Shown in pieces: positions 20,618-53,174 of a DNA stretch of 64,000 nucleotides (its first letter is position 1; each line of letters opens with the position of its first letter). The stretch spans positions 1,325,501 through 1,389,500 of the forward strand of contig NZ_CP076443.1 of assembly GCF_018866345.1 (NCBI RefSeq), in the 5' to 3' direction. Below the pieces are notes generated by a model. It searched no databases and had not been told where the DNA came from. It worked only from the letters and a program-made list of their open reading frames with translations. The position numbers and the translations under genes are program-made. Source of the stretch: Gemella sp. zg-570 (lineage in GTDB: Bacteria; Bacillota; Bacilli; Staphylococcales; Gemellaceae).

Positions 20618-22117
20618 TTAGTTCCTATATTTAACTTCTACAATTTCTTTATCATATACATATATACTCTCAATATGTTTTTCAACTACATCTCTAGTTA
20701 ATTTATCAATCTTAATTTCCTTAATTTCTTTTTCAGATAACACTTTTAATTTAGTTTTTAGAGTAGCTATTTCACTATCAAGTAAGTTTTTTGTATCAAT
20801 AAATTTTTCTCTAGATATTTTACCCAATTTGTATTTTTCATAAGATATATCTTTTTTAGCTTCTATCTTTTTAATATCTTCAGCAATAAATTTTGCTTCG
20901 TACTCTTGTTTTTGTGTATTACTTGATTCAATGTTATATCGTTCTTTTAATAAATTAAATATATTTCTTTCAATCTTATCTGCTCTAACACTGTTTTGAG
21001 ATTCTCCTCTTTGTGGGCAAATGCGACATCTAAAGTAAGTTACAATATAAATACTCCCATCTTTTTTCTTCCTACTTGTAACCTGACAATTTAAGATATG
21101 ACCACAATTTTTACATCTAACAAATGATTGTAAAGGCGATTTTTTATACCATTCATAATCTGAATTCTTCCCTCTAAGAAAACTATTTTTATTTTTAAGT
21201 TCACTAACTTTATTAAAAACTTCATAAGATACAATAGGTTCATGATTATTTGGTACTCTTTCCCATTCTTCTTTCGGAAGAGATCTTGCTTTAGTTCCTC
21301 CTACTTCTAATTTTGGTTGCATATTAAATACATAAGTTCCAGTATAGTTTTCATTCATCAAAATATCGGTAACAGTCCCATTAGTCCAAGATGGTTTTGT
21401 ATTCATATAGTCAAGTATATTATAAGAATAATCCATATTTGTAATTTGTTTTTTCCTAACACTTGGCATGATGTAGTCTTTTTCATTCATTAATTTGGTA
21501 ATTTTTCTAATAGATAATCCATCTAAATATAATTTAAAAATTTCTCTAACTACTGGAGCGACTACTTCATCAATAATAATTCTATATTTATCATTTGGAT
21601 CTTTCATATATCCATAAGGCGGACTCCAACCCAAATACTTACCTTGTTTCTTTTGTATTCTCATAGATGTTTTAACTTTATCTGAAACATCTTTTGAGTA
21701 GAAATCATATAGTAAACTTTTAAACTGAATATCTAAATCTGTTCCATTTCCTTTTTCTTTAAAACTATCATATCCATCATTAATTGAAATGAAGCGTACA
21801 TTTAAAAACGGAAATATATTTTCTAAATAATCACCAATTAAAATATAATCTCTTAGAAATCTTGATAAGTCTTTTACGATAATGCAATTAATCTTTCCTA
21901 GTTTCACATTTTCCATTAGATTTGTAAAACTGGGTCTATTTATATTAGTTCCTGAATACCCATCATCAATATATTCTATCTTTTCATATGTTCTTAACTC
22001 ACTATCTTTTAGAATAAAATCTGTAATTAAAAGTCTTTGACTAGAAATACTTTCACTTTCTAGCCTGTCCCCAAATTCCTCAATGGATATTCGCATGTAA
22101 AGAGCAATTTTATTCAT
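20618..22117 (-). CDS. Large serine recombinase, third of three
   Basis: A 499-residue site-specific recombinase of the TnpX/large-serine type. The resolvase-like domain (1-150) has the catalytic serine in YMRIS (Ser11), with IDDGYSGTNINRPSF and IVKDLSRFLRD following. The recombinase domain (~170-290) carries PPYGYMKDP. A zinc ribbon is intact (CKNCG ... CRIC, residues ~337-365), then a coiled-coil tail. It overlaps the second recombinase by 8 bases. Three tandem large serine recombinases occur at the end of some streptococcal ICEs and mobilisable elements, where all may be needed for excision and integration. Confidence 0.95.
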   Translation of the reverse strand: MNKIALYMRISIEEFGDRLESESISSQRLLITDFILKDSELRTYEKIEYIDDGYSGTNINRPSFTNLMENVKLGKINCIIVKDLSRFLRDYILIGDYLENIFPFLNVRFISINDGYDSFKEKGNGTDLDIQFKSLLYDFYSKDVSDKVKTSMRIQKKQGKYLGWSPPYGYMKDPNDKYRIIIDEVVAPVVREIFKLYLDGLSIRKITKLMNEKDYIMPSVRKKQITNMDYSYNILDYMNTKPSWTNGTVTDILMNENYTGTYVFNMQPKLEVGGTKARSLPKEEWERVPNNHEPIVSYEVFNKVSELKNKNSFLRGKNSDYEWYKKSPLQSFVRCKNCGHILNCQVTSRKKKDGSIYIVTYFRCRICPQRGESQNSVRADKIERNIFNLLKERYNIESSNTQKQEYEAKFIAEDIKKIEAKKDISYEKYKLGKISREKFIDTKNLLDSEIATLKTKLKVLSEKEIKEIKIDKLTRDVVEKHIESIYVYDKEIVEVKYRN

Positions 22118-23777
22118 GATAATTACCCCCAGTTAAATAATGAACTGAAAAGGTAAAGACTATTTCAAATTCAGTTTTGTTTTTTACAATAATTTTATCA
22201 ACAAGAGCTTCTATTAATTCTCTAGATAATCTATCACTTTTATTTGCAGTATATAAGTTTTCAATCCATAATAATGCTTTTTTAAGTTCCATCTCTAGAA
22301 AATTCTTTTTATTTTCTAATTTTACTAACTCTGCTTGATAATTTTGTCTGTGATTAATGAATATTTCTCGTTTTAATCGATATTTTTCTAAACTCAGTTT
22401 ACTTTCTTTATATTTTTCATATGATTTTTCAAGGTCAATCTCTTCTCTTTCAAGTTTTTTAGTTAGCTTTAAAACTTCTGTATTTAATAAGTCAAAAGAT
22501 TTTTTGTATCGTGAATTGACTTTATTTACTAAACTAGACTGACAAGTATCTTTACTTATAAATTCTCTAACTAATTCAGTTAGTTTATCATCAATTACTT
22601 TTTCAACAATGTGAATATTAGGTTCTTCATTTAACTTTCCAGTAGATCTTTCGTTTCTAAAGATATAATGAAACTTATCTTTATTCTTACCATAAATGAC
22701 CATTCTTCTATAAAGTTCTTTTCCTGAATAGAAACTATAAATCTTACCTTTAAATCTATTTTCAGGATCTCTATCAAAATCATGTTTCTTCCTAGAAAAA
22801 TAGCTAAGATATTTTCTTTCTTTTCTAGCTTCTAATATTTTTTGATATTCTTCTTCCGTTATGATAGGTTCATGAGCATTTTCAAAAACAATATATTCAT
22901 CTTTATTTGTAAAATGTTGTTTTATTCCTTTAGCAAGATTTTGTTGTTTAACTCCTTGAACTAATTTTCCAGTATAAGTAGGCTTAGTTAATATCTTTGA
23001 AATGCTACTCTTACTCCATTCAGGATCATCTGGAAGTCTTTTTAATCTTCCAGTTTTATAATAAACCATAGGCGTTGTATACCCTTTGGTATTAAAGATT
23101 TTAGCAACTTCAAATTGGGATAAACCACTTAGAGTTAGGTCAAACATCTCTCTAGCAATCCCACAAGTATTTTTATCTAATTCTAGTTTCTGTCCTTCTT
23201 TTAATTTAACAACCTTATAGCCATAAGGTGGAACAGAGCCAATAAAATATCCATTCTTCGCACGATTTATTTTTGAAGATTTTATCTTTACAGAAATGTC
23301 TTTTGCATACAAATCATTGATAATATTCTTTAAAGTTATCTCAAATGACTTCTTAGAATCTGTGTTATTTAAAGTATCTAACTTATCATTTACAGAAATA
23401 AACCTAACTCCTAAAAATGGAAATACTTTATCAATCAATCTACCCATTTCTAAATATTCACGCCCAAGTCTTGATAAATCTCTTATGATGATACAATTTA
23501 TTCTTCTATTTTTGATATCATCCATCATTCTAATAAACGATGGTCTTTCAAAATTTGTGCCACTATATTCATAGTCAGTATAAACTTCTAAAATATCGAT
23601 ATTTTCTTTTAAAGCATATTCCCTACAAGCAATAGTCTGTGTTTCAATAGAATAAGATTTACTTCTCCATTCCTCACTTCTTTCATTGGAAAGCCTTGTA
23701 TAAATACCAGCTCTAAATCTTGATTTTGCTTCTTGTAGTACTTCTGTTTGAAGGTGTCTTTTTGATGTTCTACCCAT
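22110..23777 (-). CDS. Large serine recombinase, second of three, with degenerate zinc ribbon
   Basis: A 555-residue recombinase starting at the ATG at 23777, one base after the stop of the first recombinase, with AGGAGGTG 7 bases upstream. The catalytic serine is in YTRLS (Ser30), with YEYSGTNFERPSF and IIRDLSRLGRE also intact. Where the other two have zinc-ribbon cysteines, this one reads KIYSFYSGKELYRR, so both cysteines of the first pair appear replaced by serine. A coiled coil follows. The active site looks functional but DNA recognition may differ, consistent with division of labour inside the triplet. Confidence 0.93.
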   Translation of the reverse strand: MGRTSKRHLQTEVLQEAKSRFRAGIYTRLSNERSEEWRSKSYSIETQTIACREYALKENIDILEVYTDYEYSGTNFERPSFIRMMDDIKNRRINCIIIRDLSRLGREYLEMGRLIDKVFPFLGVRFISVNDKLDTLNNTDSKKSFEITLKNIINDLYAKDISVKIKSSKINRAKNGYFIGSVPPYGYKVVKLKEGQKLELDKNTCGIAREMFDLTLSGLSQFEVAKIFNTKGYTTPMVYYKTGRLKRLPDDPEWSKSSISKILTKPTYTGKLVQGVKQQNLAKGIKQHFTNKDEYIVFENAHEPIITEEEYQKILEARKERKYLSYFSRKKHDFDRDPENRFKGKIYSFYSGKELYRRMVIYGKNKDKFHYIFRNERSTGKLNEEPNIHIVEKVIDDKLTELVREFISKDTCQSSLVNKVNSRYKKSFDLLNTEVLKLTKKLEREEIDLEKSYEKYKESKLSLEKYRLKREIFINHRQNYQAELVKLENKKNFLEMELKKALLWIENLYTANKSDRLSRELIEALVDKIIVKNKTEFEIVFTFSVHYLTGGNYHE

Positions 23778-23778
23778 T

Positions 23779-25434
23779 TTACGCACCTCCTACAGATACA
23801 TGTCTACTTTCAACAAGTGAATCGTGTAGAGCTTTTCTAAAATTCATTATTCTATTTTTCTTTTTTGTTTCTGGTTCAGATACATCTACTGACTCTGAAA
23901 TTTGTTTTAATAATTCTACTTCTTCATAGTTATTTAAAACGACATCAATACGATTATCTTCTTCAATAAAAATTTTATCTACAAAAGATACAAGCGTTAA
24001 TCTATCAATTTCTTGCACTTGTTTATAATTATCCGTAGACAGTTTTGAAATGTTTTCTTTTAAGACTTCTACAATCTCTTTTTTCTTTGAAATTTGACTT
24101 TCTATCTCTCTTATTTTTAATAGATAATTCTTACGATATCTTTCAAATTCTTCGCTAGAGATAAGTTCATCTTCAAGATCAAGATATAAAGATTGTCTTA
24201 GTTTTTCATATTTAGATTTTTCTTTCTCAAGACTTGCAACATCAACTTTAACTTCTAATTTAGTAAAATCAATGTTTTTAATTTTATCAAGTAATATTTG
24301 ATAAACTTTTATATGATTTGTTAATACATATTCAAGTGCTTCTAGTATTTCTGTTTCTTTTATGCTATGTCTTGAACAATTTCCCGTTCTATTATTCTCT
24401 GAACAAATATAAAATATGTCTTCTCCACTTGCTTTTTTTATTTTTCTCCTAACCATAGATGAACCACAATCTTTGCAATAAAGCATACCTGCAAGCAAAC
24501 TTGGTTTTTGTTTTGAGGTATTCAAATCTCTTAACATCATCTTATTAGCAAGTTCAAAAATACTTTTATTAATAATAGGTTCATGGCTATCTTTAATCAC
24601 AATCCAGTCATCTTTAGATACATCTACAATTCTAGTAGATTTATAATTGAGTTTTGTTGTTTTCCCTTGTTCAAGTATTCCTATATAAACCTTATTTTCT
24701 AAAATACGATTTATCATTTTCGCATCCCATTTTCCATTTTTTATAGAAAATCCATTACAGTTCATATAAGTATTTTCTTTATACTTACCAGGTGTTACTT
24801 CTCCAATACTATTTAAGAAATCAGCAATAGCTTTTGAAGAATACCCTTCAATTTTCATATCAAAAATTCTCTCAACTATATGAGATACATTTTTATCGAT
24901 TATCAATTTGTGTTTATCATTGTCATCTTTTTTGTAACCAAAAGGAGCAAATGAGGAAATAAATTCTCCATTCTTTCTTTTGATTTCTTTTGAAGATTTC
25001 ACTTTCATTGAAATATCACGACAATAACTATCGTTGATAAAATTTCGGATTGGTAAAATTAGATGTGTATCACTGACATCAGCATTTTCACTATCATAGT
25101 TGTCATTTACCGATATAAAACGAACTCTTTTTTCAGGAAATATTTTTTGTAGATATTTGCCACTTTCAATATAATCTCTACCAAATCGTGATAAGTCTTT
25201 TACAATAATGATATTAAATTTTTTATTGTTTAAATCTTCTATCATTCTAATAAAATCAGGACGATTAAAATTAGATCCAGTATAACCATCATCTATATAT
25301 TCGGCTACAATATTAATACCATTATTTTTTGCAAATAATTCAATAATCTGTCTTTGACTAGATATTGAATTACTTTCATTTGTATCTCCATCTTCTTTTG
25401 AAAGTCTGAGATACATACAAGCTAATTTGCTCAT
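23779..25434 (-). CDS. Large serine recombinase, first of three
   Basis: A 551-residue recombinase. The catalytic serine is in YLRLS (Ser12), then IDDGYTGSNFNRPDF and IVKDLSRFGRD. The recombinase domain has APFGYKKDD, an intact zinc ribbon (CKDCG ... C ... C, residues ~318-350) and a coiled-coil C-terminal region. The ATG at 25434 follows AAGGAGGTAA. It is the first gene of the recombinase operon, driven by a CTGACA/TAAAAT promoter, and is preceded by a 51-residue small protein gene. It likely acts with the other two to cut and join the element ends. Confidence 0.95.
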   Translation of the reverse strand: MSKLACMYLRLSKEDGDTNESNSISSQRQIIELFAKNNGINIVAEYIDDGYTGSNFNRPDFIRMIEDLNNKKFNIIIVKDLSRFGRDYIESGKYLQKIFPEKRVRFISVNDNYDSENADVSDTHLILPIRNFINDSYCRDISMKVKSSKEIKRKNGEFISSFAPFGYKKDDNDKHKLIIDKNVSHIVERIFDMKIEGYSSKAIADFLNSIGEVTPGKYKENTYMNCNGFSIKNGKWDAKMINRILENKVYIGILEQGKTTKLNYKSTRIVDVSKDDWIVIKDSHEPIINKSIFELANKMMLRDLNTSKQKPSLLAGMLYCKDCGSSMVRRKIKKASGEDIFYICSENNRTGNCSRHSIKETEILEALEYVLTNHIKVYQILLDKIKNIDFTKLEVKVDVASLEKEKSKYEKLRQSLYLDLEDELISSEEFERYRKNYLLKIREIESQISKKKEIVEVLKENISKLSTDNYKQVQEIDRLTLVSFVDKIFIEEDNRIDVVLNNYEEVELLKQISESVDVSEPETKKKNRIMNFRKALHDSLVESRHVSVGGA

Positions 25435-25496
25435 TTTTATTACCTCCTTAATATCTTGTGGTAAAAGTCTATTAAGGAAGTGCTTCTACATCTAAT

Positions 25497-25525
25497 ATTT
25501 TACCGCACCCTATAATTTATGTCAG
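25497..25525 (-). promoter_or_regulatory. Promoter of the serine recombinase operon
   Basis: On the minus strand: -35 CTGACA (25520-25525), 17-base spacer, -10 TAAAAT (25497-25502) preceded by CGG. The same CTGACA ... CGGTAAAAT arrangement drives the membrane protein gene at 29426, suggesting common control. Confidence 0.65.
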
Positions 25526-25534
25526 GTCATCTGA

Positions 25535-25690
25535 TTAAATTTTAATACAAGCTGCACATAAATAATTTTCAATGATATCCTCTAGACTTAATTTATTACC
25601 GTTAGAAAAACTTACTTTTACTTTATCTCTAATTTTTTCTTCTTTAGTTTTTTCTTCTTTTTCTTTTGATAATTTATTTTTACTTTTCAT
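25535..25690 (-). CDS. 51-residue protein upstream of the recombinases
   Basis: A short frame with a good AAAGGAG ribosome binding site. The N-terminal half is almost all lysine and glutamate (SKEKEEKTKEEKIRDK), followed by VKVSFSNGNKLSLEDIIENYL and a CAAC pair near the end. I recognise no family. Its place between a regulatory region and the recombinase promoter, and its strong start signals, suggest it is real, possibly an excision or regulatory factor. Confidence 0.5.
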   Translation of the reverse strand: MKSKNKLSKEKEEKTKEEKIRDKVKVSFSNGNKLSLEDIIENYLCAACIKI

Positions 25691-26137
25691 AATAAATCTC
25701 CTTTATAAGATTTAAGTTTTTTGACATTAGTAGGTGCATTGGTTGCTACATTGGCATCTCACCACTCCCTTTTTCTCGACAGGAAGCTCAACGTATTGAA
25801 GTATCATTATCACTATTTATTTCATTGCATACAGTTTCCACACTATATGTTTAGGTATTCCTATTTATCGCTCACTTTCTTTTATCCTTTGTATAAGACA
25901 GATACAAGTATTCATTTAAACCCTTAAGCAGAAAGGTCATTGCGTAAGTCCTAATTCTCTATAAATAGATAAAGTCCTACTTTGGTCTATTCAGTTGTCA
26001 ATGAACTATTTAAATATTTTTAGAAGAATAGTTTTATCCCTCTATATGTATAAGTGAATTTTTGAGGCTAGTGTAACACTTTTTTTGAAAAAAATTTAAA
26101 AAAGTGGTTATTTTTTTATAACCACTTTAAGAAATAA
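25691..26137. other. Regulatory intergenic region, no convincing gene
   Basis: About 450 bases between the 51-residue protein and the sigma-like gene. Base composition is less AT-extreme than elsewhere. A plus-strand frame at 25721-25927 lacks a ribosome binding site and has an odd composition (H, Y, L rich), so I do not call it. A T-rich end at 26085-26130 with the stem AAAGTGGTTA / TAACCACTTT looks like a terminator for the sigma-like gene. Confidence 0.5.
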
Positions 26138-26554
26138 TTAATCAGCTAACCATTTTCGTATCTTATTTAATATACTTTTATGTTTTCTACTGATTTTCAT
26201 AACATTCGTTTTATTTTCCTTTGCTAAATCTCGCATTGATTTCTCATCAAAATAAATAGCATCAATTATTTTTCTTTCTTCCTCATTTAATTTGGAAATT
26301 GCCTTATATAAATCTTCTATTCTCATCTTGGCTTCAACTATTTTTTCCACATCAACAGACTTATCTTTTATATGATCTATAAAATTATCATTTTCTTTAT
26401 CAAATTCAGAAAAATACAATAAATTATTTTTTCTATCTAACCTTTTTAAATAATTTTCTCTATTTAATTCTTTGCAATGCTCAAGATATACTTTTCTTGT
26501 TACAGGAATTCTTTTACCATTGACTTTTAGGTAATATTCTTTTTTGTCTTTCAT
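26138..26554 (-). CDS. Sigma-70 region-4-like regulator
   Basis: A 138-residue protein whose C-terminal half resembles sigma factor region 4: LYKAISKLNEEERKIIDAIYFDEKSMRDLAKENK followed by a recognition-helix-like MKISRKHKSILNKIRK. The N-terminal part (KVNGKRIPVTRKVYLEH) resembles small sigma-like proteins of conjugative transposons, such as those near the integrase of Tn916 relatives. The ribosome binding site is GGAGGAAAATTAAA. It lies between the recombinase operon and the mobilisation genes, a usual place for a regulator of excision and transfer. Role inferred. Confidence 0.75.
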   Translation of the reverse strand: MKDKKEYYLKVNGKRIPVTRKVYLEHCKELNRENYLKRLDRKNNLLYFSEFDKENDNFIDHIKDKSVDVEKIVEAKMRIEDLYKAISKLNEEERKIIDAIYFDEKSMRDLAKENKTNVMKISRKHKSILNKIRKWLAD

Positions 26555-27060
26555 TTTAATTTTCCTCCATTTCTTCTCTTGTTTTGAAAAGAAATAAAGG
26601 AGGGCTTCTACATCGAATAGTTAGTTTAGCTTTAAGCATCAAAAAATATTTCATTCAATAAAAGCCCCCTTCCTTGTCAGAAGTAGACTTCTAAAAAACA
26701 AAAAAAGGGAGCGATTAAATAAAATCGAACCCTGATAAACACAATAATTCTTCTTAAAGACCGATTCCCTTTAGTCATAAGATATTTAGTAATTATTGCT
26801 AAGCAAACTAAACAACGGTATTATAGGTCATAAAATAAAACGCCAAGAAATAATTTCTCAGATAAACTTTAATTATTTAGTATGGAATTAGCGAGAATTG
26901 TTGTTATACTCCTAACTATTTTCTATACTATAATTTTACAATACTTCCTCATACAATTAGTGAAATGTCTACATTAAAACGAAATTTTATTACATTTAAA
27001 CATATTCTTTAGAAAAGATTTATTTTTTGATTTATGCTATAATACTTTTATAGAATTAAT
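26555..27060. other. Long regulatory region before the mobilisation genes
   Basis: No gene seen. It includes a 16-base motif, GCTTCTACATCGAATA (26603-26618), matching GCTTCTACATCTAATA at 25482-25497 in the recombinase leader. It also has an extended -10 (TGCTATAAT, near 27035) on the plus strand that probably serves mobC-mobA. Confidence 0.5.
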
Positions 27061-27090
27061 GGCTTTTAGCTTGTATTATATTGTAGCAAG

Positions 27091-27193
27091 CACAGTAAGT
27101 GTGTACCCACTTACGAAAAAAATTGATAAAGCAGACCTTTTAAGGCTCTGCTTTTTTTGTTATCAATTTTACTTTTAGGGAGAACCCTAAGAC
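27091..27193 (+). other. Candidate origin of transfer (oriT)
   Basis: Just upstream of mobC are three nested inverted repeats. GTAAGTG-TGTACC-CACTTAC is at 27095-27114. A compound hairpin at 27121-27168 has outer arms AATTGATAA/TTATCAATT and inner arms AGCAGA/TCTGCT. TTAGGG-AGAA-CCCTAA is at 27175-27190, followed by GACCCC. Stacked inverted repeats next to a MobC/MobA pair are typical of a relaxase nick region; the middle hairpin could also act as a terminator. The nick site is not determined. Confidence 0.6.
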
Positions 27194-27221
27194 CCCTATA
27201 TTTTTTGAAAGGAGAAAACAA

Positions 27222-27578
27222 ATGGCAAATAGAACTAGAAAAATTCAGTTAAAAATCTGTCTTACAGATAAAGAAAAAGAACTTTTTGAAGAAAAAAGAC
27301 GATTATCAAAATGCTCATCTATGGCTTCTTTTATCAGAAAATCAATCTTAGAAAAAGAAATAATCGTTATCGACTTAGAACCTTTTTACAAAATTCAGCA
27401 CCTACTTTCTAATGCAACAAACAATATTAATCAGATTGCAAAATACACAAATACTTATGGTGTGATTTATAAAACTGATATAGAAGATATGAAACAAATG
27501 ATTAGTAAGACTTCTAAAAATGTGTTGGATATTCTCTCTTATTTACAAAATACAAACAAGATAAATGTTGAGGAATAA
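27222..27578 (+). CDS. mobC: MobC-like relaxosome accessory protein
   Basis: A 118-residue protein of the MobC type. The N-terminal ribbon-helix-helix-like part is RKIQLKICLTDKEKELFEEK with ASFIRKSIL. The C-terminal helix holds the family's ATNNINQIAKYTN stretch (residues ~67-79). MobC proteins bind oriT and help the relaxase open the strands. The ribosome binding site is AAAGGAG; the relaxase gene begins 3 bases after its stop. Plus strand, opposite to the rest of the element. Confidence 0.88.
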   Translation: MANRTRKIQLKICLTDKEKELFEEKRRLSKCSSMASFIRKSILEKEIIVIDLEPFYKIQHLLSNATNNINQIAKYTNTYGVIYKTDIEDMKQMISKTSKNVLDILSYLQNTNKINVEE

Positions 27579-27580
27579 CT

Positions 27581-28921
27581 ATGGCAATTACTAAAATTCA
27601 TCCTATAAAATCAACACTTAATCTTGCTATTAAATACATTACAAACGAAAATAAAACAGATGACAAAATACTTGTATCGACCTTTAATTGTCATGAAGAT
27701 ACTGCTTATATTCAATTTCAAAATACTAGAAATTTTTATGAAACAAAAGGAACTGTACTAGCAAGACATTTAATTCAATCTTTTCTTCCTGATGAAGTTA
27801 GTCCTGAACTTGCACACAAAATTGGAAAAGAATTATGTAATAAATTACTAAAAGATAACTATGAATATATTCTTACTACTCACATTGATCGTGGACATAT
27901 TCATAATCATATTATATTTAATAATGTTGGTTTTAAAACTGGAAAATGTTATCAAAGTAATAAAAGAACTTACCATACTATAAGAGCGATTAGTGATGAA
28001 TTGTGCAAAGAAAACAACCTAATCATTATTGATGAGTTTTATGAAAAATATAAAAAACTAAGAGCTAAAGGACAATCATATAAACAATATTTAGAAAATA
28101 AAAAAGGAACTTCTTGGAAATCAAAATTACAATTTGATATTGATAACTCAATTATTAAATCAAGTACTTGGAATAACTTTTTAGAACTAATGAAAGAAAA
28201 AGGCTACGAAATAAAATACGGAAAACATATTGCTTTTAAGTATAAAGATAAAGAAAGATACACTCGTTCTAAGACAATAGGTGAAGATTATACTGAAGAA
28301 AAAATAAAAGAAAGAATACTTAATACAAATAAAACAAAAATTAAAAAGCAAATTAAAGCTACTAAAAAATCTATTGGAAAAATTATTGATATTAAAAATA
28401 ATTCAAAAGCTAAAAATAGTAAAGGTTATGAAATTTGGGTAACAAAACACAATCTTTCTACAATGGCTGATTCTATCATTTCATTAAGAAAACTTGGTAT
28501 TAATAGTAAAAAAGAGCTTGATGAATACATTAAAAATAATTTTGAGAAAAGACAAAATTTACTTGATGAAATGAAAATTATTGACAAGGAACTCACTCAA
28601 CTCGATAAAATTGTAGAAGCTAGTCATAAAGTATATCAATATAAAAAAATTTATGATGCTTATAAAAAAGATGTAAAAAATCCTATTTTTAAAAATGACT
28701 ACTCAAATGAAATTAAAGAATATAAAAATGCTTTAAAACTTCTTAAAAACAATTATGATAAAATGCCAGATACAGAAACATTATGTAAAGAACTTGAAGT
28801 ACTACAAGAAAAAAAGAATACTTTATATGCTGAGTATTCTTCTATAAATGATTTGAATTACAAATTACAATTATTAAAAAATAACTATGATAAGTATATT
28901 AATAAAGACTTGGAACTATAA
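27581..28921 (+). CDS. mobA: MobA/VirD2-family relaxase
   Basis: A 446-residue DNA-nicking enzyme that starts conjugative transfer. The relaxase domain (1-~250) has a candidate nucleophile Tyr19 (in LAIKYI) and the metal-binding histidine triad motif THIDRGHIHNH (His101/106/108/110), matching the Relaxase (PF03432) pattern. The C-terminal half is a long lysine-rich helical region (KIKKQIKATKKSIG, then coiled coil), usual for MOBP relaxases. It is cotranscribed with mobC and ends at a bidirectional terminator overlapping its stop. It probably serves the whole ICE together with VirD4 at 60328. Confidence 0.93.
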   Translation: MAITKIHPIKSTLNLAIKYITNENKTDDKILVSTFNCHEDTAYIQFQNTRNFYETKGTVLARHLIQSFLPDEVSPELAHKIGKELCNKLLKDNYEYILTTHIDRGHIHNHIIFNNVGFKTGKCYQSNKRTYHTIRAISDELCKENNLIIIDEFYEKYKKLRAKGQSYKQYLENKKGTSWKSKLQFDIDNSIIKSSTWNNFLELMKEKGYEIKYGKHIAFKYKDKERYTRSKTIGEDYTEEKIKERILNTNKTKIKKQIKATKKSIGKIIDIKNNSKAKNSKGYEIWVTKHNLSTMADSIISLRKLGINSKKELDEYIKNNFEKRQNLLDEMKIIDKELTQLDKIVEASHKVYQYKKIYDAYKKDVKNPIFKNDYSNEIKEYKNALKLLKNNYDKMPDTETLCKELEVLQEKKNTLYAEYSSINDLNYKLQLLKNNYDKYINKDLEL

Positions 28922-28937: not shown

Positions 28938-29426
28938 TTAGCTATTTAGTTTTTCCATTCTGACATTCCAAACTGGAATAGCAATTAGTATTGCTATAAG
29001 AATATACACTACTTTATCTGCCGTTACATTGTTAAGTAACTGTATGTGATTTGTAGGTTTAAAATTTGAATTAAAGATATTTATAATTGATGTTGCAAAA
29101 CTTGTAGCAAGTCTTATAGTAACAGAAACACCTATAAATGTAATAAAGTAATTTAGTCCTTTACTAACAATTGGAAGAAGTCGGTGTATCAATAAAATTA
29201 AGAACCCGTATATTCCCATTGCTAAAATTCCAAATACTATATCCCAGAAATAAACAACATAACCACTTGAAATTTTCACAGATACTGCACTATGCATAAA
29301 GGTAGTTGTGTATATAAAGATAAGCAAAAAATCAACTGCAAATGCTGTTATTTTAAGCGAAGATAATGCTAATAACTTGTAAAATCCAATGAATAATAAT
29401 GTTACTAAAATTATAGCTGGTATCAT
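28938..29426 (-). CDS. Polytopic membrane protein next to the relaxase
   Basis: A 162-residue protein with about five hydrophobic segments (for example PAIILVTLLFIGFYKLL, LLIFIYTTTFMH, VFGILAMGIYGFLILL, VVYILIAILIAIPVW). The ATG at 29426 is chosen because AGGAGGTG lies 6 bases upstream; the in-frame GTG further up is part of that site. No family recognised. It has its own CTGACA/TAAAAT promoter like the recombinase operon, suggesting it belongs to the element's core rather than to the defence cargo on its right. Function unknown. Confidence 0.6.
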   Translation of the reverse strand: MIPAIILVTLLFIGFYKLLALSSLKITAFAVDFLLIFIYTTTFMHSAVSVKISSGYVVYFWDIVFGILAMGIYGFLILLIHRLLPIVSKGLNYFITFIGVSVTIRLATSFATSIINIFNSNFKPTNHIQLLNNVTADKVVYILIAILIAIPVWNVRMEKLNS

Positions 29427-29455
29427 TCTATACACCTCCTATCTTTCTTAACTAT

Positions 29456-29485
29456 ATTTTACCGCATGGAGATGTGGTTTGTCAG
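29456..29485 (-). promoter_or_regulatory. Promoter of the membrane protein gene
   Basis: Minus strand: CTGACA (29480-29485), 18-base spacer, TAAAAT (29456-29461) preceded by CGG, as at the recombinase operon. It lies just after the end of the defence operon. Confidence 0.6.
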
Positions 29486-29496
29486 GTATGAGAAAA

Positions 29497-30642
29497 TTAA
29501 CTTGTTTTTCTAAATTTATTTAATAAAATATTAAGGTTAAGACCATATTTTAATTTTTCTTTATAATCCTTCATTTTCAAGTCATCATCAGACATATAAT
29601 CAAAATCTTTCGAATTATTCTTCAGATTTTCTAATTCATTTAAATTGGCGAGAATATAAGATTCAAATATTTCTCTTTCTTCACTATTTTCAAAAAATAG
29701 TATAACTTCTTTAAATCTATTAAAAGCATAATTAGCCTCTTCGTTACTTCTATCATACAGAAATTGTAATAACCTATATCTAAAACTATCCTTTAAATAG
29801 TACCTATATACTATATTATCTTTGTAATATTGAGTTCTATTAGAAATAAATCCCCACTCAGGAGTTGGAATAAAAAGTCTCCCTGAATCTAAGGTAACTC
29901 CTTGATAGAGATCAATCACTTCTCCCTTGTATTGAAGTTTTATATCCGAAAAGGAAGTTGATTCATTAATCACAGCATAAGAGTAAAAAGCATCAGCGTT
30001 ACTAAAATTCTCGTAACCATCTTCTATCTTAATTCTAAATTCAGGAAAATATGAGTTGTAATATTCTGGTTCAATGTAAGACCAATCCATTTTATTTACA
30101 AGTAAATCAAAAAAAATTTCTTTTTTTGTTTTATTAAATCCGAACCTTTTCTTCCAAAGTCTCTCTATCTGTGAAAATGTTGAATTTCCATTGTTAGGAG
30201 TATTTCGGTCTAATTCTCGTGAATATATACATCCAGACTTCATTTTTCCATATGGCTTATCAAGAAATAAAGGAGTATTATTTATATTTTTTATTACTAA
30301 TACATCTACTATTTTATCTTCTATATTAATTGTTTTTACCGAAAATATAGGTCTCTCAGCACAAGAAAAATATAATTTTGACATTGTATCTACAATTTCT
30401 GCCTGCTTTCTTCTTTCCTCGGGTTTAATGCCTATAACCTTAAACTCATCACTAATTCCAAAGAAAATATACGAATCCTTATCATGTACTGTATTTGTAA
30501 AACATATTATATCTTTGATTAAATCTTCTATATTTTCATGCCACTTAAGTTTGAAATCAAAAAACTCATCTTCTCGCTGGCTTTCCAAAGCATTCAAAAG
30601 AATTTTTTCTAAAAATTCTATATTCTTAATTTCATTATTCAT
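29497..30642 (-). CDS. Schlafen/AlbA_2-domain protein, last gene of the defence operon
   Basis: A 381-residue protein. Residues ~15-150 show the AlbA_2 (Schlafen-type) pattern: an acidic DEFFDFKLKW, then ICFTNT, then YIFFGISDEFKVIGI. Members bind nucleic acid or nucleotides, and several act in defence or as RNases. The remainder (~165-381), with WSYIEPEYYNSYFPEF and long C-terminal helices, is not recognised. It starts 2 bases after the CD-NTase stop, without a strong ribosome binding site, so it is coupled to it. It may be an extra effector or sensor of the SLATT/CD-NTase pair. Confidence 0.75.
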   Translation of the reverse strand: MNNEIKNIEFLEKILLNALESQREDEFFDFKLKWHENIEDLIKDIICFTNTVHDKDSYIFFGISDEFKVIGIKPEERRKQAEIVDTMSKLYFSCAERPIFSVKTINIEDKIVDVLVIKNINNTPLFLDKPYGKMKSGCIYSRELDRNTPNNGNSTFSQIERLWKKRFGFNKTKKEIFFDLLVNKMDWSYIEPEYYNSYFPEFRIKIEDGYENFSNADAFYSYAVINESTSFSDIKLQYKGEVIDLYQGVTLDSGRLFIPTPEWGFISNRTQYYKDNIVYRYYLKDSFRYRLLQFLYDRSNEEANYAFNRFKEVILFFENSEEREIFESYILANLNELENLKNNSKDFDYMSDDDLKMKDYKEKLKYGLNLNILLNKFRKTS

Positions 30643-30644: not shown

Positions 30645-31442
30645 TTAATTCACCATGAAATTAAGAATTTTTTCTAAACAATCTACACTATGTTCACAAT
30701 CAACTTCATCACAACTACCTGGAGCTTTAATTTTAATAATTCTCCAATAATATTTGTTCTTGTTGAAATAGTCTAGCAAAACTCTTTCATAAGTACCTGG
30801 TTCAGAAGAACTTTCACCTGAATTAACAAATTTCCAATCACCCATAGCATGATAAACAAAACTGTCAATAACTATTCCAGATAACTTATAACTCTTAAAA
30901 TAGTTATCTCTTATAAATCTCATATGCCTGCAAGTAGCTATTAACAATCCATTACTGGAATTATTCTTTTCTTTTATTGCACTTTGTTCCGCTTTCGGAT
31001 TTGTAGATAGCCAATTCCCTCCCATGTTAGTATCTGGATAAATATAATTATCATTCCAATTTTTAAACGCAGGTAGAACTTCAAATTTAATTCCATCACT
31101 AAAAAGTACTTTAACAATTTGACCGTCTGCTCTAATTTCGCTATTAGGATAACTATCTTTTATTGCATTTCTAACAGCCTGTAATAATCTTGATTGTGAA
31201 TTCCCACTTAAACTATCAAACCTATCAAACTCTTTTTCAGGTAGCTTGACTAATATATCAATATCACTCGTACTTATTGCTGTATTACGACCATATGAAC
31301 CAACAAAGATACTATTATTAAATTCACTTTCAGTTTTCCAAAATTCTCTATTAATGGCTCTAGTTATTCTTTTATATCTATAAGAAATAACATCTCTTAC
31401 ATCTTTAGGAATAACATTGTCATATTTTCTTACTCTCATCAT
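30645..31442 (-). CDS. CD-NTase (SMODS-type) nucleotidyltransferase
   Basis: A 265-residue nucleotidyltransferase. The catalytic signature GSYGRNTAISTSDIDILV begins at residue 48, with the metal-binding pair Asp60/Asp62. The third acidic position is Glu121 (FEVLPAF), where Asp is commoner. The C-terminal helical half includes ATCRHMRFIRDNYFK and YHAMGDWKF. Enzymes of this class make cyclic or linear oligonucleotide signals in CBASS and related systems. It overlaps the SLATT gene by 23 bases, the classic gene pair predicted as a nucleotide-triggered membrane suicide system. Its ribosome binding site is GGGGGAGG. No Cap2/Cap3 ancillary genes are present. Its product is unknown. Confidence 0.88.
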   Translation of the reverse strand: MMRVRKYDNVIPKDVRDVISYRYKRITRAINREFWKTESEFNNSIFVGSYGRNTAISTSDIDILVKLPEKEFDRFDSLSGNSQSRLLQAVRNAIKDSYPNSEIRADGQIVKVLFSDGIKFEVLPAFKNWNDNYIYPDTNMGGNWLSTNPKAEQSAIKEKNNSSNGLLIATCRHMRFIRDNYFKSYKLSGIVIDSFVYHAMGDWKFVNSGESSSEPGTYERVLLDYFNKNKYYWRIIKIKAPGSCDEVDCEHSVDCLEKILNFMVN

Positions 31443-32001
31443 TTTTCAACCTCCCCCTTTGTAAACTTTTCGGTAAATTGATATCAATCTTATCTTCTGT
31501 AAAATTATTATCTTTTTTAACATTCAAAGCTTCATGTGCCATTTTTACAGCTTTATCAGTAGTGTTTGGAGCGTTTTTATAAACATCCCAAAGCAAGTTT
31601 TGCAAATCTGTATATTTTATTAATAGTTCTTCAATATTATTATTTGCATGCATAATTTCTATCAGCAGTACCTTAAATTTATCTCTTAAAATAAGTAATT
31701 CTACAGCTGTTTTTTTATGATTTTGTATATTGTTTTGTAATTCAAAGGATTTAAAAAACATACTTATAAATGCACTTAAAAAAGATAGTAATGCTGATCC
31801 CAGTTTAACCCAAAACTCATCTACAAAAATTAATGATATTAATCCTGCTGATGTGAGTGAAGAGCAGATTATTCTTGCAACTTCATATCGTTTATACTTA
31901 TTGCTTAAAATATCCGCCTGTTTTTCTTGAATTTTATGTGCCCAAACAACACTCATAAATGTATTTCGCACATTATCTTCTAGGATAAAATAATCATTCA
32001 T
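31420..32001 (-). CDS. SLATT-domain membrane protein, predicted pore-forming effector
   Basis: A 193-residue protein with two adjacent membrane spans around residues 40-75 (ICSSLTSAGLISLIFVDEF and LGSALLSFLSAFISMFF). Flanking N- and C-terminal helices end in EALNVKKDNNFTED. This is the SLATT architecture, predicted in nucleotide-centred conflict systems to be a membrane effector opened by a signal from the partner nucleotidyltransferase. It follows the restriction gene after 2 bases (AAGGAGATG site) and overlaps the CD-NTase gene by 23 bases. Fold assignment is good; killing activity is inferred from the family. Confidence 0.82.
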   Translation of the reverse strand: MNDYFILEDNVRNTFMSVVWAHKIQEKQADILSNKYKRYEVARIICSSLTSAGLISLIFVDEFWVKLGSALLSFLSAFISMFFKSFELQNNIQNHKKTAVELLILRDKFKVLLIEIMHANNNIEELLIKYTDLQNLLWDVYKNAPNTTDKAVKMAHEALNVKKDNNFTEDKIDINLPKSLQRGRLKNDESKKI

Positions 32002-32003: not shown

Positions 32004-35000
32004 TTACATCTCCTTAATAGAAGTTTTAATATGATTACGTTCGTTTTCAGTTAAACTATATTTTTCAAATAGTTGAATATCTATCTCTTCAATAGATTTT
32101 GACCAGTCTATATCTGACTTATCACTAAAATCCTGTATAGGAACAAATCTAAATGTTTTAGATGTAGCATCTTGACTGGCTTTTGCAAGGCTATGCATAT
32201 ATCTTACAAACTTTGTTGTTAAATATTTTACTAAATTGCAACTAGATTTATTATCTAAATTCAAATTTGCTCCTATTGATAAGTAACTTTCCGTACAAAT
32301 CTCATTTGGTTTAGCTACAAAAGCATTTAAGTTATCATCATTTAATTCAGTACCTATGTTATTTGCTCTAGGTATAAACACTTTCCATGAGTCAATCCAT
32401 TCTGTATTTTTTCCAACTAATTCTCTCTCGACAAATCCAATTTTTTTTCCTTTTCCATAACATATAATTGGATTAATCATATCCTCTAAACTATCTTTGT
32501 ATTTTGGATCGGTTATAAAATAACCCCTAAATCCAAATGGGCGTAACGATGATACTTCTTCAGATATAGAATTACCTTTGCATTTATCAATAATTTCTAA
32601 ACCAATGCTGTCTCTAATAAAGATTTCAATACCCTCCACTAAAAGTTTTCTGTCGATATTAGAAATAACTTCTCGATTTTTATTCGTTACAACTTTAACC
32701 TCAGGCTTTACCTTATTAATATCACTTATAAAATAACATACTCCACCTCGATTATTTGTGTTTGGAAAGACATCCTCTGGAGTTAAAAAATCATGTAATT
32801 CTACAATAGAATTATCATTCAACATGTATTCTCTAAAATTATCTAATCCCTTTCCACCTGCAAACCATCTTGTTGGTGTTATAAAGCTTGTATAAGTATT
32901 AGATAATTGCTTCCCAAGTAAAACAAAATGATGGTAAATTGGTTTTGCACTCGATTGTGCTCCACCATCACTAACTTGATAAGGTGGATTGCCTACTATT
33001 GCTCCAAACTTCACTATTTTTTCACCTGCCTTTATTTCATCAGTTAAGTCAATTTCCCTAAATTTTTTATTTTGTTTAAGTAAATTACATATCTTTTCAT
33101 AATCTACATTATCAGATGTACTTTTTACCAAGTCATATGCATTAAAATTAATGGCAATGTTATCAATATCTAAATCCAATATTTCATAAAATCTTCTTGT
33201 AAATTCATAAGCAATAGAAGAGGTAGGAATAGAGTAAATAATGTCTTTTACTTCTTCATGAGAAAATCCTAAATCATTAATCAATCTTTTATATAGAGCT
33301 ACTGCATACTCACCAGACTTAGTTGCAATATCTAAAAGTTTATTTTTTTCATTTACTATTTTCCTTAATCCACCTTCTGGGATAAGATCAACCATTTCAT
33401 TACAAACTCTGGTTGGTGTTATCACCTCTGACTCTGACATTCTGTTAAATTTCTTTAAAGACGTTAAAGCCCTATCTAATGGACTAACACTATCATCCGA
33501 AGCAAGTTTTGAAATATTTTGTATTTTATAATCTAATTTACTTCTTTTAAAAGGATCCATTAAATACGATAATTTTTCTAAAACATTCTTATTTAAATAT
33601 AAATTTTTTGCTAATCGAGTATTTTCATCTTTTTGTATAACATTTAATATATCATCTAAAGATGCAACATTATCCTTAGTTAAGAAAGAAAAGAATAGCA
33701 CCCTTTGATAATAAGTTTTTATTTGTCCTTCTAAGCGTTTAATTTCTTCATCAGTTTTTTCTTCTTTGAATGACTTATTATCTTTATCTTTATTACTATT
33801 TGTATCCGATGAATCATCTGAAGAATCATCTATATCCAAGTCGTCGCCTTCACCTTGATTTGGATCTATTGTTAAACCTTGTTTAGAATTAAATTCTCCC
33901 TGCTCTTCAATTGCTTTTCTCACTTCGTCATCTTCTAAAATTGATAAATCTATAGGAATATCGACTACTTCATCTGAAACACTTCTCTTATTATTATACA
34001 AACTTACAGCTTCAAGTATATTTGTTGCATCAACTTGCTTAATCTTGTTATTATTCATCACTATTACAGGAGAAATACGTAGTTCTTCTTCTATTCTCTC
34101 CCTTAATTTTGAATTTCCATTTTCATCAGTGTTCACATTATATATTAGTGACTTTTGTTCTTGCATTCTGAATAGTCTATCTGGATCAAAGTCTACTAAC
34201 AATGTCTGCGGTTTTAAATTTTCTTTTATAATTCCACTTTCACTTGACAAAATTCTAATATACTGATTTTGTAATCTAAATATAGATTGATCGTATTCTT
34301 GTGGTGAAGCTGTATCCTTAAAATACATCATGGTATCCCATTGTTCTACAGTTGATCCTGTAAGCATTCTATTTACAGTTAATGTAAGAGTTTTTTTATT
34401 TTCCGTTTCATATTCCTTGATTTTATTTTTTATATCATTAGGAGTTCTAAATGTTTTACTTGAATCTACCCCTGAAATATTTAATATTTGATAATCATTT
34501 AAATTTCTAAAGGAATCTTTATGGGTAGTAATCAATTCTTCCATAGCATCACAAGAAGCACAGTAAGGTAAAACCATAACCATATGTCTACACATTTTAC
34601 CTTCTTTGATTTTGTCATAATCTAGGAATCCTAATAAGTCTTCATCATCTTTACTACCATCTATAACTTTTAGCAAATCAATTATTTCAGATTCATTTTG
34701 AAATTTTTTATGATTATTATTTTTACTATCCTTTTTTATAGATACAGGTTCAAATAATTTGGAAAAAGCAAAACTAACACCACTTCTTCTTAAAGCTTCC
34801 ATTTTTTGCCTAGAAGATTTATTAGGATTGAATGCAAATCTAATCATTTGCGGAAAACCATAATACGGATTATCCCATTCATTTACATCATCATTATTTA
34901 AGTTGTTTTTATCCCATTCTTCTTGTTCCTTAACAATATCAGAAAACTGAACAAAAGAAATAATATCTTCTTTTTCAAATTCACTTCCCATCAATATACG

Positions 35001-36050
35001 ATATGGGGTTCCTGATAAATGCAACCTTATAGAAGCATTAATTTTCTTTATTTCTTCCTTAGCATCAAGTACATCCATACTATCGTCAGATATTTTTTTA
35101 AAATTCTTTTCATCATTTTTATCATATCCAGCATCTTTTAGTATCTTTCCAAATGATTCTGCTCTTGCTCCAAAATGAGTTTCATCTACTATTAATAAAT
35201 CAATTTGTTCTTCGAATAATTGTTTATGTTTATCTTTTATTGTTTCACCTTGTAAATCTTGTAACGTTAAAAATAAAACAATTCTTTTATCTTCTGACTT
35301 TTTATCTTTTATAATTTCTTCATTTCTCAATAAATCTTCTGCATCTAAGAAAATATACTGATGGAAGTTTCCAGCACTTTCTACTGTTTTTTTCCATTCA
35401 TCTCTAACATCAGCTTTAGCAGAGAGAACTAACACTAATTCGGCATCCATTTTTAACGCACAACAAAGAGAAGTAAATGATTTACCAAATCGCATAACTG
35501 CATACATTAACAAATTTTTTCTTCCATTTTTAATCGCTTTGTCAAAGTTATTTACTGCTTCTAATTGATTTGGTCGTAAATTCCAATTATCTCCTCGCTG
35601 ATAATGAAAAGTTTGAGGCAGATTATTTTTTGAACTGTAATATTCATATTTACCAGTGTTTTCTATATGATTATTCTTTATATCATTAATGGCATTTTCA
35701 ACATCTTCAGGTGTAGCTCCTTTAAAAAATTCTTTACTATAATATAAATCATTTTCCAAATCAGAGGGTAATAATCTTATCTTCTTTAAATCGTCCTCTA
35801 AATATTTATGAACGGAATAGTCTCTAAAGTATGTCTCATCATCAATAAGTGCTTTGCTTTCATATTGTTTTTCTAGTTCTGGGAAGAATACTCTCCACTC
35901 ATTTAGTCTTTTCGCAACTGAACGATAAGTGTCTCCTACTTTTAAATAATTAGGAATAGTATTTGTTGTAAAAGCGTAAATATAAGGGTCAACTCTACCA
36001 ACAATTATCCTATCTAATATATCTATTGCTTCAATTTTATTGTCTCTCAA
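32004..36050 (-). CDS. GIY-YIG nuclease + SF2 helicase + N6-adenine methyltransferase restriction-modification protein
   Basis: A 1348-residue multidomain enzyme. Residues ~20-110 look like a GIY-YIG nuclease (YIYAFTTNTIPNYLKVGDT, then RLNEW). Helicase motifs follow: the Walker A-like FGKS (Gly189), the DETH box (Asp289), LSGTPYRIL near 345, and a motif VI region near SPQEYDQSIFRLQNQ. An acidic linker lies around residue 750. The methyltransferase half (~890-1348) has TPTRVCNEMVD, LLDIATKSGEYA and the catalytic NPPY at 1021. The C-terminal region probably recognises the target. The start is TTG at 36050, placed 9 bases after AAGGAGG and one base after the upstream stop; the in-frame TTG at 36071 precedes that site. 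Type IIG/ISP-like single-chain restriction, partner 36052. Confidence 0.85.
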   Translation of the reverse strand: MRDNKIEAIDILDRIIVGRVDPYIYAFTTNTIPNYLKVGDTYRSVAKRLNEWRVFFPELEKQYESKALIDDETYFRDYSVHKYLEDDLKKIRLLPSDLENDLYYSKEFFKGATPEDVENAINDIKNNHIENTGKYEYYSSKNNLPQTFHYQRGDNWNLRPNQLEAVNNFDKAIKNGRKNLLMYAVMRFGKSFTSLCCALKMDAELVLVLSAKADVRDEWKKTVESAGNFHQYIFLDAEDLLRNEEIIKDKKSEDKRIVLFLTLQDLQGETIKDKHKQLFEEQIDLLIVDETHFGARAESFGKILKDAGYDKNDEKNFKKISDDSMDVLDAKEEIKKINASIRLHLSGTPYRILMGSEFEKEDIISFVQFSDIVKEQEEWDKNNLNNDDVNEWDNPYYGFPQMIRFAFNPNKSSRQKMEALRRSGVSFAFSKLFEPVSIKKDSKNNNHKKFQNESEIIDLLKVIDGSKDDEDLLGFLDYDKIKEGKMCRHMVMVLPYCASCDAMEELITTHKDSFRNLNDYQILNISGVDSSKTFRTPNDIKNKIKEYETENKKTLTLTVNRMLTGSTVEQWDTMMYFKDTASPQEYDQSIFRLQNQYIRILSSESGIIKENLKPQTLLVDFDPDRLFRMQEQKSLIYNVNTDENGNSKLRERIEEELRISPVIVMNNNKIKQVDATNILEAVSLYNNKRSVSDEVVDIPIDLSILEDDEVRKAIEEQGEFNSKQGLTIDPNQGEGDDLDIDDSSDDSSDTNSNKDKDNKSFKEEKTDEEIKRLEGQIKTYYQRVLFFSFLTKDNVASLDDILNVIQKDENTRLAKNLYLNKNVLEKLSYLMDPFKRSKLDYKIQNISKLASDDSVSPLDRALTSLKKFNRMSESEVITPTRVCNEMVDLIPEGGLRKIVNEKNKLLDIATKSGEYAVALYKRLINDLGFSHEEVKDIIYSIPTSSIAYEFTRRFYEILDLDIDNIAINFNAYDLVKSTSDNVDYEKICNLLKQNKKFREIDLTDEIKAGEKIVKFGAIVGNPPYQVSDGGAQSSAKPIYHHFVLLGKQLSNTYTSFITPTRWFAGGKGLDNFREYMLNDNSIVELHDFLTPEDVFPNTNNRGGVCYFISDINKVKPEVKVVTNKNREVISNIDRKLLVEGIEIFIRDSIGLEIIDKCKGNSISEEVSSLRPFGFRGYFITDPKYKDSLEDMINPIICYGKGKKIGFVERELVGKNTEWIDSWKVFIPRANNIGTELNDDNLNAFVAKPNEICTESYLSIGANLNLDNKSSCNLVKYLTTKFVRYMHSLAKASQDATSKTFRFVPIQDFSDKSDIDWSKSIEEIDIQLFEKYSLTENERNHIKTSIKEM

Positions 36051-36051: not shown

Positions 36052-36981
36052 TTAATATACCTCCTTACCAATCAAGTCTTTAAATATAACTTTCTTCTTG
36101 GACCTCCAATCTTTAATCACACAATAGTCATCTATGTATTCCTCTTCAAAGCCAATAAATGACATCTGTTCGTTTGGAGATACATACTTTTTAAATGGTA
36201 TTGTATAGGTCAAACCATCCATTTGCCATAAATTCCATGAAATGATTTTTGCAATTCTAATTAATTCTCTATGTGTTGGATACCTATTTAATTTAAATTC
36301 CATATTATCACAAAAAGTAGCCAGTAAATTTTCTCTAGCAATTAATAAGCTATCACCTTGAAATTCAAAACCATATACACTTTGAAATGCACGTTCACTC
36401 CATTCAAGCCAATCTTGCTCATTATCAGTATTTTCATTTACTATTCTTAATTTTCTATCTAAAATTCCAATCCTCTTATTAAGTTCTATATATTTTCCAG
36501 AAACTGTATCATATCTACTTACTAAATATGGAGCTTCTCCGCATGTAATCTCTAGCCTTTTCTCATCTACATATTTTTTCCATGACTTATTTTTTTCTTT
36601 AGGAAAAATAATTTTTTCTACAGTTGAGTCCCATGATTTCTCCGTTTCAACATTAAAAACATTACTCCTTCCAAACCAAGCAGCGTCAATCAAATTATTT
36701 TGTGCATTGCAAATCCAACTAGGCGTAAATACTTCTGCTTTAGACTTTGTTCTAATAATCTGATTTTCTTTAGACTTTAATATTCTAGGTTGAATAATAT
36801 TCCCTAGACTGCCTGTAATCAGATGATATTGTATAGGATATTTTGAATAATAAGAATTTCCTAGATATTCATAATCATCTGTTGCCCAGATGATATTTGT
36901 ATTTGTTGTTCTGTCTATCAAGAGTATTTCTAGAATTTCTCTACTCCACTTCTCTTCACTTACATCGATTTTTAAATCCAT
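36052..36981 (-). CDS. Methylase-like subunit ('restriction endonuclease subunit M' type)
   Basis: A 309-residue protein seen in other genomes beside large helicase/methylase restriction proteins. It has a motif X-like EVFTPSWICNAQNN (near residue 81), the conserved ITCGEAPYLVSRYDT (near 148), RIGILDRKLR and SVYGFEFQGDSLLIARENLL, which resembles motifs I-II of N6 methylases. No (N/D)PPY catalytic motif is visible, so it probably supports SAM or DNA binding for the big partner rather than methylating alone. It starts immediately at the XRE gene's stop and ends one base before the partner's TTG. The role is inferred from family and operon. Confidence 0.75.
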   Translation of the reverse strand: MDLKIDVSEEKWSREILEILLIDRTTNTNIIWATDDYEYLGNSYYSKYPIQYHLITGSLGNIIQPRILKSKENQIIRTKSKAEVFTPSWICNAQNNLIDAAWFGRSNVFNVETEKSWDSTVEKIIFPKEKNKSWKKYVDEKRLEITCGEAPYLVSRYDTVSGKYIELNKRIGILDRKLRIVNENTDNEQDWLEWSERAFQSVYGFEFQGDSLLIARENLLATFCDNMEFKLNRYPTHRELIRIAKIISWNLWQMDGLTYTIPFKKYVSPNEQMSFIGFEEEYIDDYCVIKDWRSKKKVIFKDLIGKEVY

Positions 36982-53127: not shown

Positions 53128-53174
53128 TAGTTCTCCTTTCAATTTTTTAATAAAAATAATAGACCTTTATTGTT

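What the first reader, a model, noticed from the sequence alone, without database searches (positions are those of the whole stretch)
32004..36050. GIY-YIG nuclease, helicase and adenine methylase in one chain, with a separate methylase-like partner
Single-chain ISP-type enzymes usually carry an Mrr-like nuclease. Here the N-terminus reads as GIY-YIG (YIYAF ... KVGDT), followed by FGKS/DETH helicase motifs and NPPY at residue 1021. The second subunit (36052-36981) carries methylase-like motifs but no visible (N/D)PPY.
Basis: partly seen in the sequence, partly recalled or inferred. Interest (0 to 1): 0.65.

Follow-up and report, generated by a model that had tools for sequence, protein, structure and literature searches.

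The report
DrdVI-type fused restriction-modification system
A mobile element carries a two-gene DNA-defence enzyme that marks the cell's own DNA with methyl groups and probably cuts unmarked foreign DNA; it belongs to a known but little-studied family whose methylase seems to be shared between two proteins.

Summary
The large ORF (32004-36050, TTG start just after an AAGGAGG ribosome site) has an N-terminal GIY-YIG domain of the T5orf172 type, a ResIII/DExH translocase, and a gamma-class adenine methylase with NPPY at residue 1021. All key nuclease and helicase residues are invariant in 73 non-redundant relatives. The 309-aa partner (M1) has intact SAM-binding motifs but no (N/D)PP(Y/F) motif; none of 136 non-redundant M1 relatives has one. 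This is a known kind: the DrdVI-type 'split methylase' restriction-modification systems (M1, M2 and a GIY-YIG/translocase R), here with R and M2 fused. PADLOC already holds both proteins end to end. M1 lies beside the large gene in 64 of 66 fused relatives. New from this work: M2's own SAM-binding half (M2N) is degenerate. M1 is repeatedly fused straight onto the catalytic half (M2c), between motifs III and IV, including R-less phage methylases that have dropped M2N. One natural M1-M2c fusion folds (AlphaFold2, pTM 0.89) as a single CamA-like methylase. M1 therefore most likely supplies SAM to M2c. M2N-M2c also folds well alone, so this is not settled. New member of a known kind.

The parts
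36052..36981 (-). M1: small subunit, 309 aa, N-terminal (SAM-binding) half of a gamma-class adenine methylase: motif X EVFTP, motif I LEITCGEAP, motif II YGFEFQGD, motif III NLWQMD; DW where NPPY would be
   Evidence: PADLOC PDLC03390 494 bits; motif conservation in 136 relatives; beside the large gene in 64/66 fused relatives
36060..36066 (-). AAGGAGG ribosome-binding site of the large gene, inside the end of M1
   Evidence: read from sequence
32004..36050 (-). R-M2 large subunit, TTG start, about 1348 aa: GIY-YIG + DExH translocase + adenine methylase with target recognition region
   Evidence: PADLOC PDLC03626 2319 bits full length
35682..35999 (-). GIY-YIG (T5orf172-type) nuclease domain, residues ~25-130 in P0001 numbering
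   Evidence: T5orf172/MUG113 in relatives; invariant Y32 K44 G46 R55 D84 H88 E114
33912..35591 (-). ResIII/DExH translocase, residues ~161-720 (RFGKS, DETH, SGTP)
   Evidence: Pfam ResIII E 7.7e-14; conservation
33036..33440 (-). M2N: second, degenerate SAM-binding half, residues ~878-1012 (motif X' VITP, I' DIATKSGEY with Lys for the first Gly, no acidic residue in II')
32007..33035 (-). M2c: catalytic half with NPPYQ (NPPY at 32979-32990) and target recognition region, residues ~1013-1355
   Evidence: Pfam Eco57I E 1.9e-24; window M2N-M2c model matches CamA, Z 21.0

Best explanation
It is a DrdVI-type ('split methylase', Type IIG-like) restriction-modification system on an integrative conjugative element, in the layout M1 + [R-M2]. 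The target recognition region at the end of the large chain is inferred to bind a short asymmetric site and one adenine in it to be methylated, protecting the cell's DNA. On DNA without the mark, the ResIII motor is inferred to use ATP and bring the GIY-YIG nuclease to cut. Most likely M1 supplies the SAM-binding half of the methylase and pairs with the NPPY/recognition half (M2c). The large chain's own N-half (M2N), which has lost standard SAM contacts, most likely serves the link to the motor and nuclease. Shown here: gene content, domains, motif conservation, operon pairing, family membership, M1-M2c and M2N-M2c model folds. From the literature: M1+M2 of DrdVI and MaeIV methylate adenine when cloned. 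Inferred: which half binds SAM here, cleavage, ATP use, the site, and that this copy is active. The confidence given is for identity as a DrdVI-type RM system; for M1 as the SAM half it is about 0.6.
For: Family: full-length PADLOC matches; 25.6% identity over 84% of the large chain to the DrdVI locus, E 3e-48 (genes), and the same PADLOC model also matches DrdVI's R and M2; published DrdVI and MaeIV methylation and 'fused translocase and REase' with a GIY-YIG domain. Pairing: M1 in 64/66 fused relatives, median spacing 0 nt. M1 as SAM half: motif I E144 and G148 136/136, acidic residue in motif II 136/136, NPPY 0/136; M2N: Lys for the first Gly of motif I in 67/73 and no acidic residue in motif II among the residues listed (P, C, A, T) (aligned with DrdV's DPATGTG). 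M1 is fused straight to M2c in L114, L117, L171/L340, L011, L017, always between motifs III and IV. R-less M1-M2c chains without M2N in phage contigs L167 and L169, 58% identical to each other; L167's M1 is 82% identical to that of a three-gene system. AlphaFold2 of the natural fusion: pLDDT 92.6, pTM 0.89, one continuous match over residues 61-647 to nearly whole CamA, Z 18.7.
Against: M2N-M2c of the window protein also folds as a complete methylase (pLDDT 91.3, pTM 0.86, Z 21.0 to CamA), so the models do not decide which N-half is used in vivo. M2N's T885, P886, G920 (73/73) and K918 (67/73) are conserved, so M2N is not simply decaying and might bind SAM in an unusual way. L053 and L276 lack a detectable M1 in their loci. 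Cleavage by the window enzyme is unproven, and the B. subtilis DnmA-YeeB-YeeC set, similar in parts, is reported as a restriction relic.
Confidence: 0.85

Rival explanations
1. Same RM system, but the large chain's M2N-M2c is the complete methylase, binding SAM through its unusual KSG motif I; M1 is a structural pseudo-methylase partner.
For: M2N and M2c are contiguous in the two commonest layouts; the window's M2N-M2c folds as a full methylase; TP of motif X' and G920 are invariant.
Against: M2N lacks the acidic residue of motif II and the first Gly of motif I, whereas M1 keeps both in every copy; R-less phage methylases keep M1-M2c and drop M2N.
Confidence: 0.35
2. A Type ISP (LlaGI/LlaBIII-like) single-chain enzyme whose Mrr nuclease was replaced by GIY-YIG.
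For: Order nuclease-motor-methylase-recognition is the same; the methylase part matches LlaGI and LlaBIII structures (Z 18-19).
Against: The best structural match of that part is CamA, not ISP; a separate conserved M1 accompanies it, which ISP enzymes lack (general knowledge); the close family is DrdVI-type with separable R and M2.
Confidence: 0.06
3. A restriction relic: only methylation remains, used for gene regulation, as proposed for B. subtilis DnmA-YeeB-YeeC.
For: That locus is reported inactive against phages; R-less M1-M2c phage methylases exist.
Against: In the window every GIY-YIG and helicase key residue and the reading frame are intact and it sits in a tight operon with other defence genes.
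Confidence: 0.1

Closest known systems
DrdVI (M1.DrdVI, M2.DrdVI, DrdVI; Deinococcus wulumuqiensis pDrdVI, GCAGCC, m6A)
   Same: Same three parts: M1 with SAM motifs and no NPPY, M2 with KSG motif I, NPPY and recognition region, R with GIY-YIG and translocase; all adjacent.
   Different: R and M2 are separate genes there; about 25% identity; here R-M2 is one chain and M1 has about 60 extra N-terminal residues.
M1-M2.MaeIV (Methanococcus aeolicus, GCACY)
   Same: Named in the same split-methylase family, m6A on one strand.
   Different: Sequence not compared here.
PADLOC PDLC03626 (Type IIG REase-MTase) and PDLC03390 (MTase_II)
   Same: Match both window proteins over their whole length (2319 and 494 bits): the fused layout is already catalogued.
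   Different: The models carry no statement about GIY-YIG or about the split of the methylase.
Type ISP enzymes LlaGI, LlaBIII
   Same: Nuclease-motor-methylase-recognition in one chain; similar methylase fold.
   Different: Mrr-type nuclease and no M1 subunit (general knowledge).
Bacillus subtilis DnmA-YeeB-YeeC and OspHL35III-like systems
   Same: Adenine methylase, helicase and GIY-YIG/T5orf172 protein.
   Different: MmeI-like single methylase, separate GIY-YIG and helicase proteins, no M1 described.
CamA (Clostridioides difficile orphan adenine methylase)
   Same: Best solved fold for both M1-M2c and M2N-M2c.
   Different: One chain, no nuclease or motor.

Membership tests
DrdVI-type split-methylase RM system | M1 subunit with methylase SAM motifs but no (N/D)PP(Y/F), adjacent to M2/R | tested here: met
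DrdVI-type split-methylase RM system | M2 with NPPY and target recognition region, homologous to M2.DrdVI | tested here: met
DrdVI-type split-methylase RM system | R = GIY-YIG nuclease fused to a ResIII-type translocase | tested here: met
   literature
DrdVI-type split-methylase RM system | m6A on one strand of a short asymmetric site when M1+M2 are expressed | not testable with these tools
   shown for DrdVI and MaeIV; no methylome of this genome
GIY-YIG superfamily (T5orf172 clade) | Invariant Tyr, KIG, Arg and Glu; profile match | tested here: met
   73/73 conservation; T5orf172 in 32/50 relatives, none in the window copy itself
GIY-YIG superfamily (T5orf172 clade) | Fold confirmed by structure prediction | not tested
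Type ISP | N-terminal Mrr/PD-(D/E)xK nuclease | tested here: not met
   N-terminus is T5orf172-type GIY-YIG
Type ISP | All functions in one polypeptide without a further methylase subunit | tested here: not met
   conserved M1 partner
Type IIG | Restriction and methylation in one polypeptide | tested here: met
   large chain; but it also carries an ATP-type motor

The most novel reading that the evidence does not exclude
The family holds one catalytic/recognition half (M2c) and two alternative N-halves: M1, which carries SAM, and M2N, which cannot use it in the usual way and is tied to the motor and nuclease. Exchange of the N-half on M2c would switch the same recognition domain between methylating (M1-M2c) and restricting (M2N-M2c) states. 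The evidence here does not exclude this, but no exchange has been shown.
Probability: 0.2. Interest if true: 0.75.

Novelty: new member of a known kind. Interest (0 to 1): 0.4.

Why it matters
DrdVI-type systems occur across many phyla in the sets searched here, yet the papers found only name them 'split methylase'. The comparison gives a concrete, testable reason for the split: the SAM half and the catalytic half lie on different chains, beside a degenerate duplicate of the SAM half fused to the nuclease-motor. That would make them a simple case of a methylase active site built across subunits, and would tell annotators that the small gene labelled 'subunit M' or 'restriction endonuclease' is needed for methylation.

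Tried and rejected
Direct Pfam match of the window N-terminus to GIY-YIG: none; relatives were needed. Sequence search of PDB with the large and small proteins: nothing; with the GIY-YIG profile: nothing meaningful; with the M2 profile: DrdV plus chance sortase matches; with the M1-M2c profile: nothing. A natural single chain holding M1, M2N and M2c, which would show which half pairs with M2c: none found among about 340 loci, many overlapping. Phage PTm1 first looked like a clean M1+M2c pair without M2N; closer reading shows M2N upstream, broken by a frameshift that may be a sequencing error, so it is not counted. L118 looked like M1 + M2c as two genes but may be a frameshifted fusion. Phylum-wide genome searches gave few hits.

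Full report
What is there. On the minus strand, 36052-36981 encodes a 309-aa protein (P0002, here M1) and 32004-36050 a protein of about 1348 aa (P0001 as translated from 36071 is 7 residues longer; residue numbers below follow P0001). The large gene starts at a TTG one base after the M1 stop, with AAGGAGG in place.

Domains of the large chain. Pfam finds ResIII (164-357, E 7.7e-14) and Eco57I methylase (945-1102, E 1.9e-24). The N-terminus has no Pfam match of its own, but 32 of 50 aligned relatives match T5orf172 (best 4e-13) and 19 match MUG113, both GIY-YIG-type families; a relative 62% identical in this stretch scores 30.3 bits against a cut-off of 20. Y32, K44, G46, R55, D84, H88 and E114 are identical in all 73 non-redundant fused relatives, as are the Walker lysine and the DExH residues. 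I regard the GIY-YIG assignment as secure by profile and conservation; its fold was not predicted.

Family. PADLOC models from the Type II/IIG set match both proteins end to end (2319 and 494 bits). The plasmid search brought up pDrdVI of Deinococcus wulumuqiensis, where small MTase, MTase and helicase genes lie in a row. DrdVI is described: M1-2.DrdVI methylates GCAGCC (m6A, IIG; PMC6430315); DrdVI is 'a fused translocase and REase' with a GIY-YIG-containing relative in Bibersteinia (PMC4996451); MaeIV is placed in the same 'split methylase' family with site GCACY, its M1-M2 locus cloned together (PMC10113651). So this is a known kind with R and M2 fused.

Relatives and layouts. Related loci were fetched from genomes and viral contigs and classified with profiles made here. 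Loci overlap between searches, so those counts are not independent. Layouts: (a) M1 | GIY-HEL-M2N-M2c, as in the window; (b) M1 | M2N-M2c | GIY-HEL, as in DrdVI; (c) M1 and M2c, separate or fused, with M2N attached to the end of R. In a FastTree of 109 non-redundant motor domains the layouts need at least 10 changes; some of these may be broken or cut genes. The window's nearest relatives are from Oceanivirga (Fusobacteriota) and an Erysipelotrichaceae genome. Among 66 non-redundant fused large genes with enough upstream sequence, 58 have M1 directly upstream, 6 have it elsewhere in the locus or slightly beyond the cut-off, and 2 have none.

The two N-halves. M1 has motif X (EVFTP), motif I (CG-E/S-A/G), an acidic residue in motif II (136/136) and motif III, but in place of NPPY a conserved D/E-W (W in 127/136); 0/136 have an (N/D/S)PP(Y/F/W/H) motif (motifs X to III). 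The large chain has its own N-half, M2N: motif X' is kept, but motif I reads D-x-x-(S/T)-K-S-G (K 67/73) and the acidic residue of motif II is replaced (the residues listed are P, C, A and T); against DrdV the K takes the place of the first Gly of GTG. So the chain with the catalytic motif lacks usual SAM contacts, and the chain with those contacts lacks the catalytic motif.

Evidence that M1 completes M2c. In L114, L117, L171/L340 and L011 (and in a different M1 subgroup, L017) M1 continues directly into FDxIIGNPPY, giving the textbook order X-I-II-III-IV, while M2N sits on R where R's end is held. In phage contigs L167 and L169 a single M1-M2c chain of 520-523 aa has neither M2N nor R nearby; the two are 58% identical and both intact, and L167's M1 is 82% identical to that of a three-gene system (the contigs, 35 and 20 kb, may be fragments). 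AlphaFold2 of the natural L117 fusion (663 aa) gave pLDDT 92.6 and pTM 0.89, and one continuous alignment from residue 61 to 647 with nearly the whole of CamA (Z 18.7, 421 residues).

Evidence that keeps the question open. AlphaFold2 of the window's residues 838-1355 (M2N-M2c) is equally good (pLDDT 91.3, pTM 0.86; CamA Z 21.0). Either N-half can therefore complete M2c in a model, and each model was given its halves in one chain. No prediction of the two-protein complex could be run. I give M1-as-SAM-half about 0.6 and M2N-as-SAM-half about 0.35. The 0.85 confidence in the best explanation refers to its identity as a DrdVI-type RM system, not to the choice between the halves.

Mechanism. By the named families: sequence-specific adenine methylation of one strand; when the site is unmodified, ATP-driven action of the ResIII motor and cutting by GIY-YIG. 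Shown here: parts, conservation, operon, family, model folds. Literature: methylation by DrdVI and MaeIV M1+M2. Inferred: restriction, ATP use, site, activity of this copy.

Context. The window is a conjugative element (large serine recombinases, MobA relaxase, TraG/VirB4-like and T4CP proteins). The RM genes head a tight minus-strand run with a SLATT_4 effector and a CD-NTase (a CBASS-type pair) and an AlbA_2 protein that PADLOC lists as candidate PDC-S50.

Verdict. Observation confirmed; ordinary at the level of 'which kind of system', of moderate interest for what the comparison says about the split methylase.

Noticed in passing
window 30645-32001: SLATT_4 two-helix membrane effector (31420-32001) and SMODS CD-NTase (30645-31442) form a CBASS-type pair that follows the large gene after 2 bp on the same strand.
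   Followed up: partly
window 28938-30642: SLFN_AlbA_2 protein (29497-30642) matching PADLOC candidate PDC-S50 with 391 bits, then a membrane protein without family match; same strand, 2 bp after the CD-NTase.
   Followed up: no
L015:58-3492: In another genome (G224) a CD-NTase 61% identical to the window's lies directly downstream of a helicase-family R gene of this kind, so the RM-CBASS neighbourhood occurs at least twice.
   Followed up: no
window 20618-28921 and 50120-62115: Conjugative element backbone: three tandem large serine recombinases, MobA-type relaxase, TraG/VirB4-like ATPase, T4SS coupling protein; sigma-70 region 4 protein at 26138-26554.
   Followed up: partly
window 25748-25810: Rfam pemK RNA (RF02913) at 40 bits, the only Rfam hit in the window, next to the serine recombinases.
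   Followed up: no
L008:3600-5200: Tenacibaculum phage PTm1 carries M1 and M2c with no R match in its 224,680-bp record; M2N upstream is interrupted by a frameshift (possibly a sequencing error).
   Followed up: partly
L039:8010-12084: The closest relative (Oceanivirga miroungae) has its large gene split into two ORFs at 9473/9475, suggesting a frameshift or stop within the helicase.
   Followed up: no
L031 (Prevotella phage Lak-A2): Lak megaphages carry a GIY-YIG/helicase relative of the large chain (30.6% identity over residues 29-636) without the methylase in the same match.
   Followed up: no
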